The position numbers were made by a program, and so were the translations under genes. DNA of 64,000 nt from Pseudoflavonifractor sp. Marseille-P3106 (lineage in GTDB: Bacteria; Bacillota; Clostridia; Oscillospirales; Oscillospiraceae): NCBI GenBank assembly GCA_900169975.1, contig LT827125.1:350826-414825 (forward strand). Reading direction: 5' to 3'. Positions 163-43,449 of this stretch are shown here, piece after piece. How positions within the stretch are numbered: position 1 is the stretch's first letter; each line of letters starts with the position of its first letter. The notes beneath the pieces are model-generated. The model ran no database searches and was not told the origin of the DNA. It saw only the letters and a list, made by a program, of their open reading frames with translations.

Positions 163-990
163 ATGAATATTCACAAGACCGACATTGAGTGGTGCAGCCA
201 CACATGGAACCCTGTAACGGGGTGTAAGCACGGGTGCGAATACTGCTACGCCCGGCGCATGGTGTCCAGGTTTGGCCCGCACCCCTGCGAGCGGCCCATC
301 ATTGAGCCGCTGGAGGTACTGCCCAAGGGGACCGGGTGCTACTACGTGGAGCAGCCTACCAAGCTCTGCGACGAAAACGGGGAGCCTGTGCGCTCCACCC
401 CGTACCCCAAGGGCTTTGCCCCCACCTATCACGCCTACACCATGGACTATCCTGAGAAGCGGAAGACGCCTGCGCGGATATTCGTCTCCAGCATGGGAGA
501 CCTGTTTGGGGAGTGGGTGCCGGACATCTGGATTGAGGATGTCTTCGCTGCCTGCAAGCGAGCGCCGCAGCATACCTACCTGTTCCTCACCAAGAACCCG
601 CAGAGGTATCTTGACATGGGCCATGCCGGGAAGCTCCCCATGGAGCGGAACTTCTGGTACGGGACCACGATCACCGGCCCTGAGACGGAATACTTTGGAG
701 CTTCCTGCGTCAACACGTTCCTGAGCATCGAGCCGCTGCTGGAGCCGTTCAGCGCGGATGACTGCGCCGGTTTCCGGCGGCTCGGTGAGCCTCTTTGGGT
801 CATCATCGGAGCCATGACCGGACCGGGGAGCAAGCGAAAGCAGCCGAAGCGGGAATGGGTAGCGGCCATCACGGAAGTTGCTCAGTCTGCCGGGGTCCCC
901 GTCTTTATGAAAAACAGTCTGAAAGACCTGTGGGGCGGCCCTCTCATTCAGGAGTACCCCGAGGGTATGGTGCGGGTAGACGGAGAATAA
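163..990 (+). CDS. DUF5131 / phage gp37-gp68 family protein, radical-SAM-like
   Basis: 275 residues. The N-terminus reads IEWCSHTWNPVTGCKHGCEY followed by CYA, so cysteines 21, 25 and 28 form the CxxxCxxC pattern typical of radical SAM iron-sulfur clusters. The protein matches the phage Gp37/Gp68 (DUF5131) family, whose reaction is not established. The ATG is preceded by a weak purine-rich stretch and the gene opens the early operon seen here. It could be a radical SAM enzyme modifying nucleic acid or protein; that is inference from the cysteine motif only. Confidence 0.8.
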   Translation: MNIHKTDIEWCSHTWNPVTGCKHGCEYCYARRMVSRFGPHPCERPIIEPLEVLPKGTGCYYVEQPTKLCDENGEPVRSTPYPKGFAPTYHAYTMDYPEKRKTPARIFVSSMGDLFGEWVPDIWIEDVFAACKRAPQHTYLFLTKNPQRYLDMGHAGKLPMERNFWYGTTITGPETEYFGASCVNTFLSIEPLLEPFSADDCAGFRRLGEPLWVIIGAMTGPGSKRKQPKREWVAAITEVAQSAGVPVFMKNSLKDLWGGPLIQEYPEGMVRVDGE

Positions 991-5829: not shown

Positions 5830-6502
5830 AACCAGACTGGAGATGCTGAAGCTCTCCGACATCGTGGCCGCCCCGTATAACCCCCGTGAAGACATCGAGA
5901 GCGGAAGCGATGAGTACAAGGCCCTGCGCCGGAGTATTGAGCTTAACGGCATGGTGGAGCCGCCGGTCGTGAACCTCCACAATATGCGCTGCATTGGTGG
6001 TAATCAGCGCCTTGTGGTCCTCCGGGACCTGGGATGGAAAGAAGTGCTCTGCTCCGTCATCGACCAGCCGGACGAAAGCAAGGAGATGAAGCTCTGCCTT
6101 GCCCTGAACCGCATCGAGGGCCGCTGGGACACCGACCGCCTGGGCGAGCTGCTGCGGGATGATGAGGTCCTGGAGTTTGAGACCGGCTTTGACCGCGATG
6201 AGGTCCTGGTCTACCGGCAGCTCGGCGGGGACGGCGAGGGCGAGGACGCCGACGATGACCCGGATTGGGACCAGGACGAAGACCCGGACGCCGAGGACGC
6301 CGACGGCGAGGAAGAGGACGAACCCGCCGGCGGTGACGATGAGCCCGCCATGGGGACTACGGTTGTCCGAATTGGACACCTACACTTCAAGGTCGAGGTC
6401 CCGCGCTACAAGCGCCTGGTCGAGAGCATCCGGGACGCCGGTATCTTCGACCAGGGAGAAATTGCCCAGGAGATGAAACGGAGGTTGCTGCGCCATGATT
6501 AA
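5819..6502 (+). CDS. ParB/Srx-fold phage protein 2 with acidic linker
   Basis: 227 residues. AAPYNPRED near residue 18 and CIGGNQRLVVL near 60 give the ParB-like fold, with Asn in place of the His seen in its neighbours. A run of about 35 Asp/Glu-rich residues (around 138-172) links to a C-terminal domain that contains HLHFKVEVPRYKRLVESIRD. It overlaps both neighbouring genes. The three paralogues probably arose by duplication and may form a mixed complex; that is inference. Confidence 0.7.
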   Translation: MKYETRLEMLKLSDIVAAPYNPREDIESGSDEYKALRRSIELNGMVEPPVVNLHNMRCIGGNQRLVVLRDLGWKEVLCSVIDQPDESKEMKLCLALNRIEGRWDTDRLGELLRDDEVLEFETGFDRDEVLVYRQLGGDGEGEDADDDPDWDQDEDPDAEDADGEEEDEPAGGDDEPAMGTTVVRIGHLHFKVEVPRYKRLVESIRDAGIFDQGEIAQEMKRRLLRHD

Positions 6503-18079: not shown

Positions 18080-18618
18080 GTTTCGTCACGAAGCGGAATG
18101 CCCTCATATCCGCGCTTCATAAGACCGTGGGCGTCCCGGTCCTGCTGGCCTCCCAGGTCCAGCCGGAGGCAGAACCCCCGTTCATCGTCTACTCAGTGAC
18201 CGCAGACTACATCCCGGACGGCGGCCTGGGCAACTACTCGCTGGGTGAGGGTGCGACGCAAGACGATCTGGTGGAGGTCCGGGAAGAGCAGCCCACCGCC
18301 ACCCTGTCATTTACTGCTTGCAGCGTGAACCGCTGCTACGACGATAAAGGCTCCCAGGTGCAAGTCCTGGGTGCAGATGAGGCCCTGGAGCTGGCAACGC
18401 TGGCCCAGGGCTTTTTCCTGCATACCGGGAGAGACGCCATAGCGGGGGCCGGTTTCGTCGTTGTTGATGTCACCAACGCCACCAGCCGGGACGCCCTGGA
18501 GCTTGACGAAATGGGCCGCCGGTTCGGTTTCGATGTCCGGCTCCGGTACACCCGGACCGACGCGGCGGCCATCAGCAAACTTGAGAAACCCACAATCAAA
18601 GGAAACGTAAAGGAGTGA
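18076..18618 (+). CDS. Phage neck terminator protein (LIC_12616-like)
   Basis: 180 residues, GTG start overlapping the previous stop. PFIVYSVTADYIPDGG near residue 34, followed by QPTATLSFTACS and RRFGFDVRLRYTRTD, resembles the LIC_12616-type neck proteins found just upstream of DUF3383 sheath genes. They terminate tail assembly at the neck. Confidence 0.65.
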   Translation: MSFVTKRNALISALHKTVGVPVLLASQVQPEAEPPFIVYSVTADYIPDGGLGNYSLGEGATQDDLVEVREEQPTATLSFTACSVNRCYDDKGSQVQVLGADEALELATLAQGFFLHTGRDAIAGAGFVVVDVTNATSRDALELDEMGRRFGFDVRLRYTRTDAAAISKLEKPTIKGNVKE

Positions 18619-18623
18619 TTTTA

Positions 18624-19700
18624 ATGCCGAAAGACGTTGTTGTGGTCGTGAATATCGACGCCAAGCCCAGCGGAACGGAGAACCTGGACATTCTGCTGCT
18701 GTCCACCGAGGGCGCTAAGGACGTGGCCGTCTACCGCGATCTGGACGTCATCAAGGAGGCGTTCACCGGGAAAAAGGTCGCTGCTATGGCCGAAGCCCTG
18801 TTTGAGCAGGGCAAGACCACCCTTGCGGAGACCCTTATCCGCAAAGTGAAAATCGCCGGTATCGCTGCCCCCTCCGGGAGCGGTGAGACCGAAAAGGCAT
18901 CTGCTCTGGTGCAGGCCGTGGAGACCCTGCGGGAGACCGATGATGATTGGTATATCCTGCTGACCGACCAGGACGGCGATGAGGCCGTGAAAGCCCTCTG
19001 CGCCTGGGCCGAGGCCACCGAGCCTACCGAAGCAGAGCTGGGCGCGGGCGAGGAAGACCACCGCAAGCTCTACTTCGGGCGCACTCAGAACAAGAGCCTT
19101 GCCGTCACCAACCGCCGGTCCATCGTCATCTACGGGGACCAGGATGAGGAATACCCCGACGCCGCCTATGTGGGCAACGTGGGGCCGTTCTACCCTGAGA
19201 GCGTAACGTGGAAGTTCAAGCGGCCCCAGGGCCTCACCGTCCCGGACCTCACCAACGCTGAGCGCGACGCTCTGGAAGAGGCCAACGTGAACTTCCTGAC
19301 CGTCGAGTACAAGCGGGAGTATGTGAAGAACGGCGTGTGCGCCGACGGCGAATTTATCGACGTCCAGATGGGCGCTGACTACATCGCCAAGAACATGAGG
19401 GAAAACCTCTACGACATCTTCCTGGAGAACCCCACCATTGGCTACACCGACGCAGGCTTTGCCCTGGTCGCTGCCGGCGTGTTCTCCGCTCTGAACCGCG
19501 CTACCGACCTGGGCATTATCGCCCTGGACCCGGAGAGCGAGCAGGGCGTCTTTACCGTTGTAGTCCCCAAGCGGTCCCAGGCCACCGACGAAGAGGCCCG
19601 CGCCCGGCAAATGCCGGACATCACCTGGGAGGCGCAGCTTGAGGGCGCGGTCCACACCGTCAAAGTCAAGGGCGTACTGCGGGCCACCCTGAGCGCGTGA
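18624..19700 (+). CDS. Tail sheath protein (DUF3383-like)
   Basis: 358 residues from the ATG at 18624, preceded by AAAGGAG at 8-base spacing; an in-frame GTG at 18615 is less likely. VVVVNIDAKPSGTENLDILL near the start and the C-terminal DITWEAQLEGAVHTVKVKGV section match contractile sheath proteins of the DUF3383 group. The sheath contracts to drive the tube through the envelope and makes this phage a myovirus type. Confidence 0.78.
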   Translation: MPKDVVVVVNIDAKPSGTENLDILLLSTEGAKDVAVYRDLDVIKEAFTGKKVAAMAEALFEQGKTTLAETLIRKVKIAGIAAPSGSGETEKASALVQAVETLRETDDDWYILLTDQDGDEAVKALCAWAEATEPTEAELGAGEEDHRKLYFGRTQNKSLAVTNRRSIVIYGDQDEEYPDAAYVGNVGPFYPESVTWKFKRPQGLTVPDLTNAERDALEEANVNFLTVEYKREYVKNGVCADGEFIDVQMGADYIAKNMRENLYDIFLENPTIGYTDAGFALVAAGVFSALNRATDLGIIALDPESEQGVFTVVVPKRSQATDEEARARQMPDITWEAQLEGAVHTVKVKGVLRATLSA

Positions 19701-28927: not shown

Positions 28928-29202
28928 CGGGGCTACTTTGCAGCCCCGAAGAGGCGAGCTGTCTTATTCCGAACCTTATCGCAGAGCTGGAGACCCCTTG
29001 CCCCTGCGAGGGCCTGGAGGGGCTTGTGCTCTGCGGTTTGGGATATAAAGGCCAGAGGGTCACTATCCGCGTCCGGCCCGGCGTCCTCGAAGTGGACGGC
29101 GTACCGGCTGATGAGCTGGAGGCCCTGCGTGAAAGGAGGTGTCCTGTTTGCAGAACCGGCACGGTGAACTCACCATCATCTGCAAGGCAAAAGACCTGGT
29201 AA
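28924..29202 (+). CDS. Small cysteine-containing protein before the DGR
   Basis: 92 residues from the ATG overlapping the fibre stop (ATGA). It has CPCEG and RRCPVCRTG cysteine pairs that may bind metal. Its end overlaps the Avd gene by 55 bases, and its coding sequence contains that gene's GGAGG ribosome site. Function unknown. Confidence 0.5.
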   Translation: MTGLLCSPEEASCLIPNLIAELETPCPCEGLEGLVLCGLGYKGQRVTIRVRPGVLEVDGVPADELEALRERRCPVCRTGTVNSPSSARQKTW

Positions 29203-29567
29203 ACCATACCTTGCAGCTCACGAACAACACTAAGCTGTTCCCTAAAAAGGTGCGCTTCACCCTCTGCCAGAGGATGCAGAACCTCTCAATCCAAATCCTG
29301 CATGACATCATAGCGGCCAACGAGATATACCCTCGGACCGTCGCTGAGATGAACACGCGCCTTGACCTCCAGAAAGAGGTCTTGACCAACTGCAAGGTCT
29401 TCCTGAACTTCCTGGATATAGCTCTGGAGCAGGGGTATATCGACATCAGGCGGTGTGAATATTGGACGGGCCTCACCACCGACGTAAAGAACCTTGCCGC
29501 GTCGTGGCGTAAAAAGGACGCCGAGCGCTTCCGGCAGCAAGTTCAGACCGGCGGCGCACGGCGATGA
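29148..29567 (+). CDS. avd: DGR accessory protein Avd (four-helix bundle)
   Basis: 139 residues from TTG 29148, eight bases after AAAGGAGG; a GTG at 29139 is too close to the ribosome site. Four amphipathic helices are visible: NHTLQLTNNTKLFPKKVRFT; MQNLSIQILHDIIAANEI; RLDLQKEVLTNCKVFLNFLD; and VKNLAASWRKKDAERFRQQV. The K-FPKK-RF pattern is typical of Avd, which forms a basic pentameric barrel that binds the reverse transcriptase and template RNA. Lies just before the template repeat. Confidence 0.85.
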   Translation: MQNRHGELTIICKAKDLVNHTLQLTNNTKLFPKKVRFTLCQRMQNLSIQILHDIIAANEIYPRTVAEMNTRLDLQKEVLTNCKVFLNFLDIALEQGYIDIRRCEYWTGLTTDVKNLAASWRKKDAERFRQQVQTGGARR

Positions 29568-29619
29568 TTTGAGAGGCCGCGGGTGCGTCCTGTACGTGCA
29601 TCCCCCTGGGTGTGCCTTG

Positions 29620-29727
29620 TCCGCTCCCCGAATTCGTCGAACGCGAACAACGTGCGCTACGTGAACTCGGACGGGAGCCTCAACAACAACAACGCGTACA
29701 ACGGCAACAGGGGTGTGCGCCCGGCTT
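29620..29727 (+). repeat. DGR template repeat (TR)
   Basis: 108 bases matching the VR at 31591-31698 with no gaps. The copies differ at 14 positions and every one is an A in this copy: seven A-to-G, five A-to-T, two A-to-C. No C, G or T of the TR has changed (81 positions). The TR has 27 A, and most changeable codons are AAC or AAT. This one-sided pattern is diagnostic of adenine mutagenesis during reverse transcription. Confidence 0.97.
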
Positions 29728-29830
29728 CGGTGGAATACCGTGACCGAGTAACCCGAAAGGGAGAAAGCAGAAGCCCACCATCAAAGGAGGACGTATCCGG
29801 TCCCGGCCTGACAGGGCAGGGATAAACACA

Positions 29831-29874
29831 TAGCGCCGACGCGCTGAGGCTCGCCCATTGGAGCTTCGGCGCTA
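29831..29874 (+). ncRNA. Hairpin between template repeat and reverse transcriptase
   Basis: TAGCGCCGA at 29831-29839 and TCGGCGCTA at 29866-29874 form a perfect nine-pair stem around a 26-base loop. It lies 104 bases after the TR and 22 before the RT start. In known DGRs sequence downstream of the TR in the template RNA is needed for priming; this stem is a candidate part of that region. Confidence 0.5.
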
Positions 29875-29896
29875 CCAGCGGCGCAAGGAGCCTATT

Positions 29897-31003
29897 ATGG
29901 AACAGAATTTTGAAGTCGTTTATGACTTCGCTAATCTCTATGCGGCGTATCGGGCAACCAGGAAAGGCAAGCGATGGAAAGACTCCGTTGCCAAAGTGGA
30001 GCTGAACACTCTGGAGGCGATCACCGTCCTGCAAGCTGAGCTGCGGGACGGTCTCTACAAGCCTGGAAATTACCATGAGTTCTACGTCTTTGAGCCAAAG
30101 CGACGCCTCATCCAGACGAACAGCGTCAAGGACAAAATCGTGCAACACGCCTTTTGCGACAACATCCTTTACCCCGTCCTGAGCCGCCCCTTTATCCTGG
30201 ATAACTACGGGAGCCAAGTCGGAAAGGGAACCCACTTCGGCCTCGACCGCCTCCGTGACTTCATGCGGGAGTATTACCGGAAGCACGGGAGCGCCGACGG
30301 CTGGGTCCTGAAAGCGGATGTCCGGCACTACTTCGCCAGCATCCGGCACGACATTCTCAAGCGAGATGTCAATAAGCTGCTCACAGACCCACGGAGCCGG
30401 GCCTTGTCCGACGCTATCATAGATAGCACCCCTGGTAATGTCGGCATCCCCATAGGCAATCAATCGTCCCAGGTGTACGCCCTATTGTATCTGAATGAAC
30501 TCGACCACTACGTCAAAGAAGTCCTCCGAATGCGGTACTATGGCCGCTACATGGATGATTTTTATATCATCTGCGAGAGCAAGGAGGCGCTTCGTGAAGC
30601 GTGGAGGAAAGTCGAGCAGTTCTTGACCCCGAGAGGTCTTGAGCTAAACCAGAAGACACAGATCTTCCCCTTGCGGAACGGCCTGGACTTTTTGGGCTTC
30701 CACACATACCTGACCGACACCGGAAAGGTAATACGGAAAGTTAGGCGTTCCAGCAAAGACCGTATGAGGCGCAAGCTGCGGAAATACGCGGTGATGTATG
30801 AAAACGGCGCTATGACCCGGAAGCAGATTGAAGAGAGCTACCAGAGCTGGAGGTCTCATGCTTCCCACGGCCAATGCCGGGAACTCATCACCAAGTACGA
30901 CGCGGTTTGCGCCTCCATCTTTGAAAGGAGTGTAAAGTCAAACCATGCCGCAGAAAATCAGCGCCCTACCCGTAAAGGCGAAAGTGCGGGACGCAAAGAC
31001 TAA
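29897..31003 (+). CDS. DGR reverse transcriptase
   Basis: 368 residues from ATG 29897, six bases after AAGGAG. Motif A is LKADVRHYFASI (Asp 141), motif B is GIPIGNQSSQ (183-192) with the SQ typical of DGR reverse transcriptases, and the catalytic YMDD is at 218-221. Motif D-E segment LDFLGFHTYL follows. It copies the TR into cDNA with errors opposite adenine. The last 59 bases overlap the target gene in another frame. Its C-terminus is basic. Confidence 0.95.
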   Translation: MEQNFEVVYDFANLYAAYRATRKGKRWKDSVAKVELNTLEAITVLQAELRDGLYKPGNYHEFYVFEPKRRLIQTNSVKDKIVQHAFCDNILYPVLSRPFILDNYGSQVGKGTHFGLDRLRDFMREYYRKHGSADGWVLKADVRHYFASIRHDILKRDVNKLLTDPRSRALSDAIIDSTPGNVGIPIGNQSSQVYALLYLNELDHYVKEVLRMRYYGRYMDDFYIICESKEALREAWRKVEQFLTPRGLELNQKTQIFPLRNGLDFLGFHTYLTDTGKVIRKVRRSSKDRMRRKLRKYAVMYENGAMTRKQIEESYQSWRSHASHGQCRELITKYDAVCASIFERSVKSNHAAENQRPTRKGESAGRKD

Positions 31004-32642
31004 GTATTACGGCATCCCCATCGGCTGGGAAATCGGTGATAAAAACCACGCAGGCTATCCGGCCAACAGCACAACCCTTGTGGCCGAGAGCATCATCAAA
31101 ATCTGCTGCTTCGACGCTATGGAGAGCGACGGCATCTTGGACCGGGAGAGATACGGCAACAACCGCTATTCCCTGGCTAACATCCGCCAGTGGCTCAATA
31201 AGAGCGGGACCGGCTGGTATCAGGCCCAGCACAGCTATGACCGGCCCCCGTCCAATTCCTACGTCTGGAACGGCCACAACGCGTACGACGCACAATCCGG
31301 CTTCCTGACCGGCTTCGGCGCGGAGATGCTGGCCGCGCTGCTCACCACCACCCTGACCGTCGCAAAGCCCGGCACGGACGGCGGCGGGTCCGAGACCGTC
31401 CAAGACAAGATTTTTCTGCTGTCCATGGCAGAGGTTGGCCTCGGTTCGGAGAACGGCGTCGCGGAGGGCACGAAGCTGGCTATGTTCAGCGACAACGCAA
31501 GCCGCCAGTGCAAGCCCACAGCTCAGGCCGTGAGCAACAGCGAGTACACCAATAGCAGCTTGAGCGCGTCGCAGTTCTGGTACTGGTGGCTCCGCTCCCC
31601 GTATTCGTCGTACGCGGGCAGCGTGCGCTGCGTGTACTCGGACGGGAGCCTCACCAGCTACTCCGCGTACAACGGCAGCGGGGGTGTGCGCCCGGCTTTG
31701 AATCTGTCCTCTGACATCTTGGTATCTGATACACCGGATGGAGAGGGGTACTACACGATTATCTGGAATAACGCCCCCACCACGCCCCCGTCCATCACCG
31801 TGCCGGAGGACGTGCGGAGCGGTAAAGGTCTCACCGTCTCCTGGGCGGCGTCGGTGGACCCGGACAGCGACGCCGTAAGCTACGAGCTTGAGCGGCAGTA
31901 CAATAGCGGCGCATGGTCCAAAATCTACGACGGGGCTGCGACGCAGTTCAGCGACACGATCACCACGGCGATGAACACGGTAGCCTACCGGGTCCGCGCC
32001 AAGGACAGCAAGGCCGCGTATAGCGCATACACCACCAGCCCCACCCGGACCGTCACCCACAATGTAGACCCGACAGTGAGCGGCAGCGATCAGCAGCTCG
32101 GCGTGGTGACTACGCCGCCCTCGTTCCAGTACACGGTCAACGACGGGGACGCCGGAGACACGCTCACCATCGTAGAGAGCCTGGATGGTGTGACCCTTAA
32201 TACCATCACCCCGGCAGAGCGGAACCACCAATACACCTTTGCGCTCACGGCGGCGCAGTTCGCCGCCCTCACTGGGCCGCACACCATGACTATCAAGGTC
32301 TCGGACAGCGCCGGGAACAGCGTCACCCGTACCATCACCTTTACCCGGTCCGTCTCCATCATCGACTTTGACTGGAAGGTGGATGACACCAGCGCCGCCG
32401 CTCAGAAAATCCTTGTCTCCATGCGGTACAACGCCCACGAGGACGGCGTGACAATCCAGGTCTGCAACAACTACAACGACGAAGAGCCGACCTGGGAGAC
32501 TGCACAGCTCGGCCTCAAGCACATTTTCAGCAATTCCGCGAAGACTGCGGATAGCTTTGCGGTGGGTGTCCGCGTCCAGATCACCAAGGTCGGAGGGTAT
32601 GAAAGCATCGCCTGCTACTCTCTGTCCGCAAGCTACATCTAA
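30945..32642 (+). CDS. DGR-diversified lectin-fold surface protein with Ig-like repeats
   Basis: 565 residues. Residues 1-265 form a DUF6273/C-type-lectin-like domain ending WYWWLRSP, then the variable repeat (residues 216-251) and GVRPALNL. From about 285 there are three Ig/fibronectin-like modules (TPPSITVPEDVRSGKGLTVS; VDPTVSGSDQQLGVVTTPPS; SIIDFDWKVDD). AGGAG is 14 bases ahead of the ATG, rather far. The protein most likely sits at the baseplate as receptor-binding tip. Having the VR in the middle instead of at the C-terminus is unusual. Confidence 0.88.
   Translation: MPQKISALPVKAKVRDAKTKYYGIPIGWEIGDKNHAGYPANSTTLVAESIIKICCFDAMESDGILDRERYGNNRYSLANIRQWLNKSGTGWYQAQHSYDRPPSNSYVWNGHNAYDAQSGFLTGFGAEMLAALLTTTLTVAKPGTDGGGSETVQDKIFLLSMAEVGLGSENGVAEGTKLAMFSDNASRQCKPTAQAVSNSEYTNSSLSASQFWYWWLRSPYSSYAGSVRCVYSDGSLTSYSAYNGSGGVRPALNLSSDILVSDTPDGEGYYTIIWNNAPTTPPSITVPEDVRSGKGLTVSWAASVDPDSDAVSYELERQYNSGAWSKIYDGAATQFSDTITTAMNTVAYRVRAKDSKAAYSAYTTSPTRTVTHNVDPTVSGSDQQLGVVTTPPSFQYTVNDGDAGDTLTIVESLDGVTLNTITPAERNHQYTFALTAAQFAALTGPHTMTIKVSDSAGNSVTRTITFTRSVSIIDFDWKVDDTSAAAQKILVSMRYNAHEDGVTIQVCNNYNDEEPTWETAQLGLKHIFSNSAKTADSFAVGVRVQITKVGGYESIACYSLSASYI
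31591..31698 (+). repeat. DGR variable repeat (VR)
   Basis: 108 bases corresponding to the TR; only TR adenines differ. Twelve codons differ from the TR in amino acid: Asn to Tyr four times, Asn to Ser four times, Asn to Gly, Asn to Thr, Tyr to Cys, and Arg to Gly. The last identical stretch, AGGGTGTGCGCCCGGCTT-like after the final change, is the GC-rich region where the initiation of mutagenic homing sequence would sit; homology ends one base later. Confidence 0.96.
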
Positions 32643-41529: not shown

Positions 41530-43449
41530 ATGAAAATAATCAATATTGGAATTCTTGCCCATGTAGACGCTGGAAAGACGACCTTGACGGAGAGCCTGCT
41601 ATATGCCAGCGGAGCCATTTCAGAACCGGGGAGCGTCGAAAAAGGGACAACGAGGACGGACACCATGTTTTTGGAGCGGCAGCGTGGGATTACCATTCAA
41701 GCGGCAGTCACTTCCTTCCAGTGGCACAGATGTAAAGTTAACATTGTGGATACGCCCGGCCACATGGATTTTTTGGCGGAGGTGTACCGCTCTTTGGCTG
41801 TTTTAGATGGGGCCATCTTGGTGATCTCCGCTAAAGATGGCGTGCAGGCCCAGACCCGTATTCTGTTCCATGCCCTGCGGAAAATGAACATTCCCACCGT
41901 TATCTTTATCAACAAGATCGACCAGGCTGGCGTTGATTTGCAGAGCGTGGTTCAGTCTGTTCGGGATAAGCTCTCCGCCGATATTATCATCAAGCAGACG
42001 GTGTCGCTGTCCCCGGAAATAGTCCTGGAGGAAAATACCGACATAGAAGCATGGGATGCGGTCATCGAAAATAACGATGAATTATTGGAAAAGTATATCG
42101 CAGGAGAACCAATCAGCCGGGAAAAACTTGCGCGGGAGGAACAGCAGCGGGTTCAAGACGCCTCCCTGTTCCCAGTCTATCATGGCAGCGCCAAAAATGG
42201 CCTTGGCATTCAACCGTTGATGGATGCGGTGACAGGGCTGTTCCAACCGATTGGGGAACAGGGGGGCGCCGCCCTATGCGGCAGCGTTTTCAAGGTTGAG
42301 TACACCGATTGCGGCCAGCGGCGTGTCTATCTACGGTTATACAGCGGAACGCTGCGCCTGCGGGATACGGTGGCCCTGGCCGGGAGAGAAAAGCTGAAAA
42401 TCACAGAGATGCGTATTCCATCCAAAGGGGAAATTGTTCGGACAGACACCGCTTATCAGGGTGAAATTGTTATCCTTCCCAGCGACAGCGTGAGGTTAAA
42501 CGATGTATTAGGGGACCAAACCCGGCTCCCTCGTAAAAGGTGGCGCGAGGACCCCCTCCCCATGCTGCGGACGACGATTGCGCCGAAAACGGCAGCGCAA
42601 AGAGAACGGCTGCTGGACGCTCTTACGCAACTTGCGGATACTGACCCGCTTTTGCGTTGCGAAGTGGATTCCATCACCCATGAGATCATTCTTTCTTTTT
42701 TGGGCCGGGTGCAGTTGGAGGTTGTTTCCGCTTTGCTGTCGGAAAAATACAAGCTTGAAACAGTGGTAAAGGAACCCTCCGTCATTTATATGGAGCGGCC
42801 GCTCAAAGCAGCCAGCCACACCATCCATATCGAGGTGCCGCCCAACCCGTTTTGGGCATCCATAGGACTGTCTGTTACACCACTCTCGCTTGGCTCCGGT
42901 GTACAATACGAGAGCCGGGTTTCGCTGGGATACTTGAACCAGAGTTTTCAAAACGCTGTCAGGGATGGTATCCGTTACGGGCTGGAGCAGGGCTTGTTCG
43001 GCTGGAACGTAACGGACTGTAAGATTTGCTTTGAATACGGGCTTTATTACAGTCCGGTCAGCACGCCGGCGGACTTCCGCTCATTGGCCCCGATTGTATT
43101 GGAACAGGCATTGAAGGAATCGGGGACGCAGCTGCTGGAACCTTATCTCTCCTTCATCCTCTATGCGCCCCAGGAATACCTTTCCAGGGCTTATCATGAT
43201 GCACCGAAATACTGTGCCACCATCGAAACGGCCCAGGTAAAAAAGGATGAAGTTGTCTTTACTGGCGAGATTCCCGCCCGCTGTATACAGGCATACCGTA
43301 CTGATCTGGCCTTTTACACCAACGGGCGGAGCGTATGCCTTACAGAGCTGAAAGGATATCAGGCCGCTGTCGGTCAGCCGGTCATCCAGCCCCGCCGTCC
43401 AAACAGCCGTTTGGATAAGGTGCGCCATATGTTCAGTAAGATTCCTTGA
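41530..43449 (+). CDS. tet(W): Tetracycline resistance ribosomal protection protein Tet(W)
   Basis: 639 residues, ATG preceded by AGGGAGGACAATCAC. GTPase motifs are [21 protein letters not shown] and NKID. The sequence agrees with Tet(W) as I know it across almost the whole length; the last few residues (MFSKIP) may be a variant end. It uses GTP to remove tetracycline from the ribosome, like EF-G. It is the cargo of element 1, after the relaxase and tnpV scar. Confidence 0.95.

What the first reader, a model, noticed from the sequence alone, without database searches (positions are those of the whole stretch)
29148..31698. Complete diversity-generating retroelement on a contractile-tailed prophage
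Avd, TR, RT and VR are all present in 2.6 kb. TR (29620-29727) and VR (31591-31698) align over 108 bases with no gaps, and all 14 differences are at TR adenines (27 A present; 0 of 81 other bases changed). The RT has YMDD and a GIPIGNQSSQ motif B. Such an A-only pattern is strong direct evidence of past mutagenic retrohoming.
Basis: partly seen in the sequence, partly recalled or inferred. Interest (0 to 1): 0.92.

Follow-up and report, generated by a model that had tools for sequence, protein, structure and literature searches.

The report
Phage retroelement mutates an enzyme fusion
A gut-bacterial prophage carries a sequence-mutating retroelement with two targets: the adhesin-like gene already noticed beside it and, 30,000 bases away among the phage's early genes, a second gene whose variable domain is joined to a predicted nucleotide-cleaving (MazG-type) domain, so the element likely diversifies a protein that works inside the cell as well as one on the virus particle.

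Summary
In detail: TR 29620-29727 and VR 31591-31698 differ at 14 of 108 bases, all TR adenines, with Avd, a DGR-type RT and a tail sheath. The nearby target is tentaclin-like, a published DGR target family, so the cassette alone is ordinary. The 3' 77 nt of the TR recur 30.4 kb upstream with 8 differences, all at TR adenines, in a 304-aa early-region gene: DUF6273 fused to a MazG-like domain that keeps its EExxE/ExxD residues. In homologs, variation in this repeat is confined to codons that hold TR adenines. A divergent phage (RT 69% identical) has the same layout; in three other loci a MazG-like gene lies within 1 kb of an unfused small target. Early location and enzyme-type partner speak against the published proposal that such second targets are Mtd-like receptor binders, and favour an intracellular, fast-evolving binder that steers nucleotide hydrolysis. 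That function is untested; Pfam's MazG model did not match. Verdict: real, a new variant of a known kind.

The parts
29139..29567 (+). avd, accessory protein of the DGR (142 aa, GTG start)
   Evidence: PHROG 3206 'Avd protein of DGR' E 5.3e-41; below the curated cut-offs of Pfam and NCBIfam
29620..29727 (+). template repeat TR (108 nt, 27 adenines)
29651..29727 (+). 3' 77 nt of the TR, also the likely source of the second, remote repeat VR2 (VR2 at contig C19:349994-350070 = window -831 to -755, outside the window)
   Evidence: 8 of 8 differences at TR adenines; whole-genome pattern search found TR, VR1 and VR2 with 0 non-A mismatches and nothing else
29710..29727 (+). 18-nt 3' end GGGGTGTGCGCCCGGCTT identical in TR, VR1 and VR2; likely contains the initiation-of-mutagenic-homing signal (role inferred)
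   Evidence: role by analogy with BPP-1 (recalled)
29728..29850 (+). conserved non-coding block between TR and RT, likely part of the DGR RNA (inferred)
   Evidence: 7-sequence alignment with invariant blocks; structure prediction weak, 1 of 11 pairs covarying
29897..31003 (+). DGR reverse transcriptase (368 aa), YMDD, GIPIGNQSSQ
   Evidence: Pfam RVT_1 5.2e-20; PHROG 1423 1.1e-138; best PDB relative 8ub7 'Reverse transcriptase' 2.7e-40, group II maturase next at 2.1e-12
30945..32642 (+). target 1, tentaclin-like protein (565 aa): DUF6273 residues 41-255, then Ig-like domains
   Evidence: DUF6273 2.8e-37; Big_9/Big_13 below cut-off; 47% identity to Phage nd4 over 99%
31591..31698 (+). variable repeat VR1 inside target 1
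18615..19700 (+). tail sheath gene of the prophage (context)
   Evidence: PHROG 205 3.5e-66
163..990 (+). DUF5131 gene, just downstream of the remote target-2 gene, which ends at window -360 (a 117-aa ORF of a PHROG family lies between)
   Evidence: Pfam DUF5131 3.7e-41

Best explanation
This is a two-target diversity-generating retroelement in which one template repeat matches, with differences at template adenines only, a variable repeat in the neighbouring tentaclin-like gene and a shorter one 30 kb upstream in an early-region gene that joins a DUF6273 domain to a predicted MazG-type nucleotide pyrophosphohydrolase; the second product likely acts inside the cell, where its hypervariable part would bind a fast-changing partner and bring nucleotide hydrolysis to it. 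Steps shown: A-only differences at both repeats; shared 3' end; hypervariability of VR2 in natural homologs confined to TR-adenine codons; two-part protein with conserved catalytic-type residues; early-gene location; the same layout in a divergent phage. Steps inferred: the RT copies the TR RNA with errors at adenines and the cDNA replaces the 3' part of either VR; the protein stays in the cytosol; the MazG-like domain is active; the diversified face binds a host or rival-phage protein, perhaps of a defence or nucleotide-signalling system.
Confidence: 0.47

Rival explanations
1. The second target is a virion receptor-binding protein, like Mtd of BPP-1, and the MazG-like helices only serve as an assembly or trimerisation stalk.
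For: Proposed in print for the second targets of nd4 and nd12 (PMC10743442, sections 9 and 11). The C-terminal part is helical. Lack of a hydrophobic N-terminus fits a virion protein as well.
Against: The gene lies with helicase loader and methyltransferase genes, not with tail genes, in this prophage and in G301. The small targets of nd4 and FP_Brigit also sit beside replication or recombination genes. Glutamates and aspartate of the pyrophosphohydrolase motif are invariant in 52 chosen sequences, E237 nearly so, which a stalk would not need.
Confidence: 0.22
2. VR2 is a by-product: a duplicated 3' end of the tentaclin repeat that the retroelement hits by accident, without function.
For: VR2 shares sequence just downstream of the repeat with the tentaclin-like gene, which suggests a past copy event.
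Against: A remote second VR was seen in eight phages examined, and the gene stays open with a strongly conserved MazG part and a frozen scaffold around the variable codons.
Confidence: 0.1
3. The fusion is a nucleotide-pool enzyme of the phage, and the diversified domain tunes its oligomer or its recruitment to the phage's own replication proteins.
For: A cyanophage MazG hydrolyses dGTP and dCTP and not (p)ppGpp (PMC6850273, abstract). Replication genes are neighbours. In nd12 the small target carries a DUF3310 domain that matches phage nucleotide-kinase families.
Against: A constant phage-internal partner gives no reason for continual diversification of nine or more residues.
Confidence: 0.2

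Closest known systems
Bordetella phage BPP-1 DGR (Mtd, Avd, bRT)
   Same: avd, TR, RT, adenine-only TR to VR differences, C-lectin-type target (BPP-1 details recalled, and as told in PMC10743442)
   Different: Second, remote target in the early region, fused to a MazG-like domain; target 1 is tentaclin-like with the VR inside the gene, not at its 3' end
Tentaclin DGRs of phages nd4 and nd12 (PMC10743442)
   Same: Target 1 47% identical to nd4 over 99%; second, shorter VR2 in a small DUF6273 gene; TR 3' end shared
   Different: There target 2 is DUF6273 alone (nd4) or with DUF3310 (nd12) and is read as receptor-binding; here it is fused to a MazG-like domain
Faecalibacterium phages Lelie and CP11 (PMC11792537)
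   Same: Large and small DUF6273 targets served by one DGR
   Different: Lelie's small target is 215 aa, DUF6273 only and below Pfam's cut-off; MazG is not mentioned in that paper's main text; CP11 was not examined here
Quimbyviridae DGR (PMC8008677, section 17 and passages)
   Same: One structural target and one non-structural target near methyltransferases
   Different: Other phages, chiefly of Bacteroidetes; authors report few other recognisable domains in such targets; here the partner domain is recognisable
[quoted passage not shown]
   Same: An enzyme-type domain joined to a hypervariable lectin-type domain, unstudied
   Different: Kinase instead of MazG-like domain; no sequence of that kind was compared here

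Membership tests
Diversity-generating retroelement | TR and VR that differ at TR adenines only | tested here: met
   VR1 14 of 14; VR2 8 of 8
Diversity-generating retroelement | RT of the DGR type | tested here: met
   GIPIGNQSSQ motif; best PDB relative 8ub7 at 2.7e-40, far above group II and retron RTs (that 8ub7 is the BPP-1 RT is recalled; a paper search for it found none); no tree was built
Diversity-generating retroelement | Avd accessory protein | tested here: met
   PHROG 3206 5.3e-41, below the curated cut-offs of Pfam and NCBIfam, no solved relative
Diversity-generating retroelement | Ongoing retrohoming (mixed reads at VR) | not testable with these tools
   no reads available
Tentaclin (target 1) | N-terminal DUF6273/C-lec domain that holds the VR, then Ig-like domains | tested here: met
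   DUF6273 2.8e-37, Ig-like matches under cut-off; 47% to nd4
Tentaclin (target 1) | Consensus motif of the C-terminal Ig domain | not tested
   motif not compared
MazG-like all-alpha NTP pyrophosphohydrolase (C-terminus of target 2) | Sequence match to the family | tested here: inconclusive
   PHROG 2245 1.1e-17, but no Pfam MazG match at E 0.1 and none in NCBIfam
MazG-like all-alpha NTP pyrophosphohydrolase (C-terminus of target 2) | EExxE and ExxD metal-binding residues | tested here: met
   E236, E240, E269, D272 invariant, E237 at least 90%, in 52 chosen sequences; motif definition recalled
MazG-like all-alpha NTP pyrophosphohydrolase (C-terminus of target 2) | Fold | tested here: inconclusive
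MazG-like all-alpha NTP pyrophosphohydrolase (C-terminus of target 2) | Nucleotide hydrolysis | not testable with these tools
   needs an assay
Mtd-like receptor-binding protein (target 2) | Gene in the tail module | tested here: not met
   lies beside helicase loader and methyltransferase genes
Mtd-like receptor-binding protein (target 2) | Presence in the virion | not testable with these tools
   needs virion proteomics

The most novel reading that the evidence does not exclude
A gut phage lineage uses its retroelement as an antibody-like generator for an intracellular weapon: a hypervariable C-lectin-type head that docks a MazG-like nucleotide hydrolase onto ever-changing host defence proteins or their nucleotide signals, while the same template diversifies the virion adhesin, so that one element evolves attachment and counter-defence together.
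Probability: 0.2. Interest if true: 0.88.

Novelty: new variant of a known kind. Interest (0 to 1): 0.62.

Why it matters
Second, non-structural DGR targets have been reported in gut phages, but few other recognisable domains left their roles obscure (PMC8008677; phage CotH-kinase fusions to hypervariable lectin domains are mentioned there and called unstudied). A target joined to a pyrophosphohydrolase-like domain gives a handle that an enzyme assay and a pull-down can test. It also suggests that phage DGRs serve more than host attachment: one template would couple evolution of a virion protein to that of an early intracellular protein. The full-text searches made here (diversity-generating retroelement with MazG, 3 papers; DUF6273, 5 papers; with nucleotide pyrophosphohydrolase, 10 of 104 listed; with anti-defense, 5 papers) listed no paper that, by title, start of abstract or the passages read, describes such a fusion. 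Most of those papers were seen as listings only; subscription journals and preprints are not held.

Tried and rejected
Rfam search of the window: 0 families. No close relative of the element in IMG/VR by TR pattern and none in the 15 other genomes of the genus, so sister VR1 sequences could not be compared; the sister test was made on VR2 proteins. Full-length fusion in species genomes: 1 of 300 of the family and 1 of 394 of the order, each time the window's own; at 1e-40, 5 other family genomes matched, up to profile position 226 of 293, and showed no MazG-like ORF in their short loci. DUF3310 as a distant MazG: no support, hhalign probability 0.2% with a thin alignment. Conserved RNA structure after the TR: weak, 1 of 11 pairs with double changes in 7 sequences. 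Solved-structure sequence search: no Avd relative, no MazG for the fusion. PADLOC: no match for the fusion. My A-only run finder stops at the first non-A mismatch, so 'all at A' is built in there; run length, the pattern searches with 3 mismatches allowed and the control carry the argument. The 107-nt pattern did not list VR2, which is shorter. (DUF6273 in the own genome) did not list the small target of the second prophage; the TR pattern found it. After a check of the draft, confidence in the best explanation was lowered from 0.50 to 0.47 and the odds of the novel case from 0.22 to 0.20, and the Mtd-like rival raised from 0.20 to 0.22, because the missing hydrophobic N-terminus does not tell cytosol from virion.
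Full report
What was claimed and what is there. The window's TR (29620-29727) and VR (31591-31698) align over 108 bases; 14 of 14 differences fall on the 27 TR adenines and 0 of 81 other bases changed. The RT has YMDD and GIPIGNQSSQ and its best solved relative is 8ub7 (2.7e-40), well ahead of group II and retron RTs. Avd matches PHROG 3206 at 5.3e-41, though under the curated cut-offs of Pfam and NCBIfam. Tail sheath, tape measure, baseplate, portal and terminase genes lie upstream.

Target 1 is known. The 565-aa target has DUF6273 (2.8e-37) followed by Ig-like domains under the cut-off and is 47% identical over 99% to target 1 of Phage nd4, which Baykov et al. named tentaclin (PMC10743442; abstract, sections 5, 9, 10, 11 and passages read). 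Taken alone, the cassette is a new member of that kind.

The second repeat. The window is C19:350826-414825 of a 3.12 Mb genome. A search of that genome with the element's DNA found a further match just outside the window. The 3' 77 nt of the TR (29651-29727) recur at C19:349994-350070, window -831 to -755, with 8 of 8 differences at the 19 adenines, P 3.6e-6. A whole-genome pattern search allowing 3 non-A mismatches found TR, VR1 and VR2, each with none, and nothing else; the reversed pattern gave 0. VR1 and VR2 are changed at 9 and 8 of those 19 adenines, share 5 changed sites and only 1 identical change, so they were likely diversified separately. All three share the last 18 nt, GGGGTGTGCGCCCGGCTT.

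Hypervariability in nature. The protein database gave 477 homologs, of which the best 120 were listed; 110 of the 120 cover at least 90% of the query, the unlisted ones were not seen. Of the 120, 118 were aligned. In the clade of the query (10 rows after 4 gapped or chimeric ones were dropped) mean entropy is 1.71 bits at the 12 codons of VR2 whose TR codon holds an adenine, 0.00 at the 13 other codons, 0.10 in the part before the repeat and 0.00 in the MazG part; in a second clade of 44 rows, judged by the window's TR because its own is unknown, 2.10, 0.01, 0.18 and 0.06. The nearest listed homolog (97%) differs at 10 residues, 9 of them A-holding VR2 codons. The small target of Lelie behaves alike: 13 residues with entropy over 1.8 bits, all at 146-169, in 121 sequences; in the nd12 family (83 sequences) 9 of 11 such residues lie at 225-242 and 2 elsewhere.

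Conservation of the layout. A 65 kb IMG/VR record (G301) holds an RT 69% identical and a fusion 52% identical to ours; its TR gives VR1 (105 nt, 10 of 10) and VR2 in the fusion gene (74 nt, 8 of 8), about 32 kb away. The search reports one TAG inside that RT match, which I did not follow. In this prophage and in G301 the fusion lies downstream of a DnaD-like helicase loader, with methyltransferase genes near; our copy is followed by a DUF5131 gene, and G301 and a third record without an RT (L129) have a similar-looking gene there, judged by eye only. Remote second VRs were also seen in nd4, nd12 and Lelie (published cases), in FP_Toutatis and FP_Brigit, and in the second DGR of the same host genome. 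With ours and G301 that makes eight phages, Lelie and Toutatis being close relatives. For nd4, Toutatis and Brigit the record's own annotation names replication, recombination or methyltransferase genes nearby; for nd12, Lelie and the second prophage the neighbours are mostly unnamed. The phages were picked because they carry a small DUF6273 gene, so the number is no estimate of frequency. The passages read in Cornuault et al. (PMC5883640) tell one target for Brigit.

MazG linkage. Among 22 loci with a small DUF6273 gene (1812 ORFs) a profile found 7 MazG-like ORFs: 3 are fusions, 3 lie within 1 kb of the small target (nd12, overlapping; the second prophage of this genome; L145) and 1 (nd4) lies 11 kb away. 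The four unfused ones were in the profile's seed; leave-one-out profiles still found each. The scan that gave L129, G301's locus and L145 used a MazG-part peptide among its two patterns, so these are not unbiased. Placing the four unfused ORFs at random within their loci gives 3 or more within 1 kb with P about 0.01. 15 loci had none, 6 of them with only about 1.5 kb of flank. Lelie's next gene matched Pfam MazG at E 0.13 only. In nd12 the small target itself carries DUF3310 (2.5e-16), which matches phage nucleotide-kinase families.

How it most likely works. Shown: two A-only repeats with one template, hypervariability confined to template-adenine codons, conserved enzyme-type residues, early location, no hydrophobic N-terminus (best 15-aa hydropathy in the first 45 residues 1.07, against 2.49 for a secreted-type neighbour). 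The last point speaks against secretion only, since the tentaclin-like protein has none either. Inferred: the RT copies TR RNA with errors at adenines; cDNA enters either gene by their common 3' end, and replaces only the 3' part in VR2; the product stays in the cytosol; its changing face binds a changing partner and places a nucleotide-hydrolysing domain on it. What the partner is remains open. Host-phage conflict is the reading that best explains why diversity would pay. Benler et al. drew a similar inference for a second target of Quimbyviridae from its neighbours (PMC8008677, section 17 and passages), and Roux et al. separate structural from non-structural DGR targets (PMC8144416, section 11 and passages). 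A cyanophage MazG prefers dGTP and dCTP (PMC6850273, abstract and outline only), so a plain nucleotide-pool role is a fair rival.

Verdict. The cassette is a known kind; the second target joined to a MazG-like domain is a new variant of it, and it makes the open question of what non-structural DGR targets do directly testable.

Noticed in passing
G000:C18:365527-368101 and C18:345668-345742 (L021, L170): A second, separate DGR in the same host genome: avd, TR, RT and DUF6273 target, with its own remote second VR 20 kb upstream (75 nt, 10 of 10 differences at adenines) in a 358-aa gene whose overlapping upstream genes include a MazG-like ORF (Pfam E 0.055; local profile 5.6e-15 when left out of its own seed).
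   Followed up: partly
NC_047909.1:3948-4559 (L171): FP_Brigit has a second VR (73 nt, 7 of 7 differences at adenines) in an early gene between regulators and exonuclease/RecT genes; the passages read in the phage's paper mention one target.
   Followed up: partly
P0097, P0089: Database proteins that join the start of the fusion to the tentaclin-like end or to the TR; either assembly chimeras at the repeats or recombinants.
   Followed up: no
window 41530-43449: A 639-aa ORF to the right of the prophage genes matches a phage-library 'translation elongation factor' family at 2.2e-245; its size recalls ribosomal-protection tetracycline resistance proteins (recalled, not tested).
   Followed up: no
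window 163-990: DUF5131 gene near the second target matches two PADLOC candidate defence models (PDC-M41B, PDC-M30B).
   Followed up: no
L139-L142 (e.g. L139:4384-5591, TR 5991-6057): Two small DUF6273 ORFs in tandem just upstream of a TR and RT; in L139 one of them holds an A-only repeat of 67 nt.
   Followed up: no
window 29728-29850: Strongly conserved non-coding block after the TR across seven DGRs, including CATCAAAG-like and GGGGACAAACACA-like motifs.
   Followed up: partly
G000:C11:2196-5437 (L001, L002): Two further RT-type ORFs (559 and 756 aa) in the host genome; the Avd search found no match on that contig.
   Followed up: no
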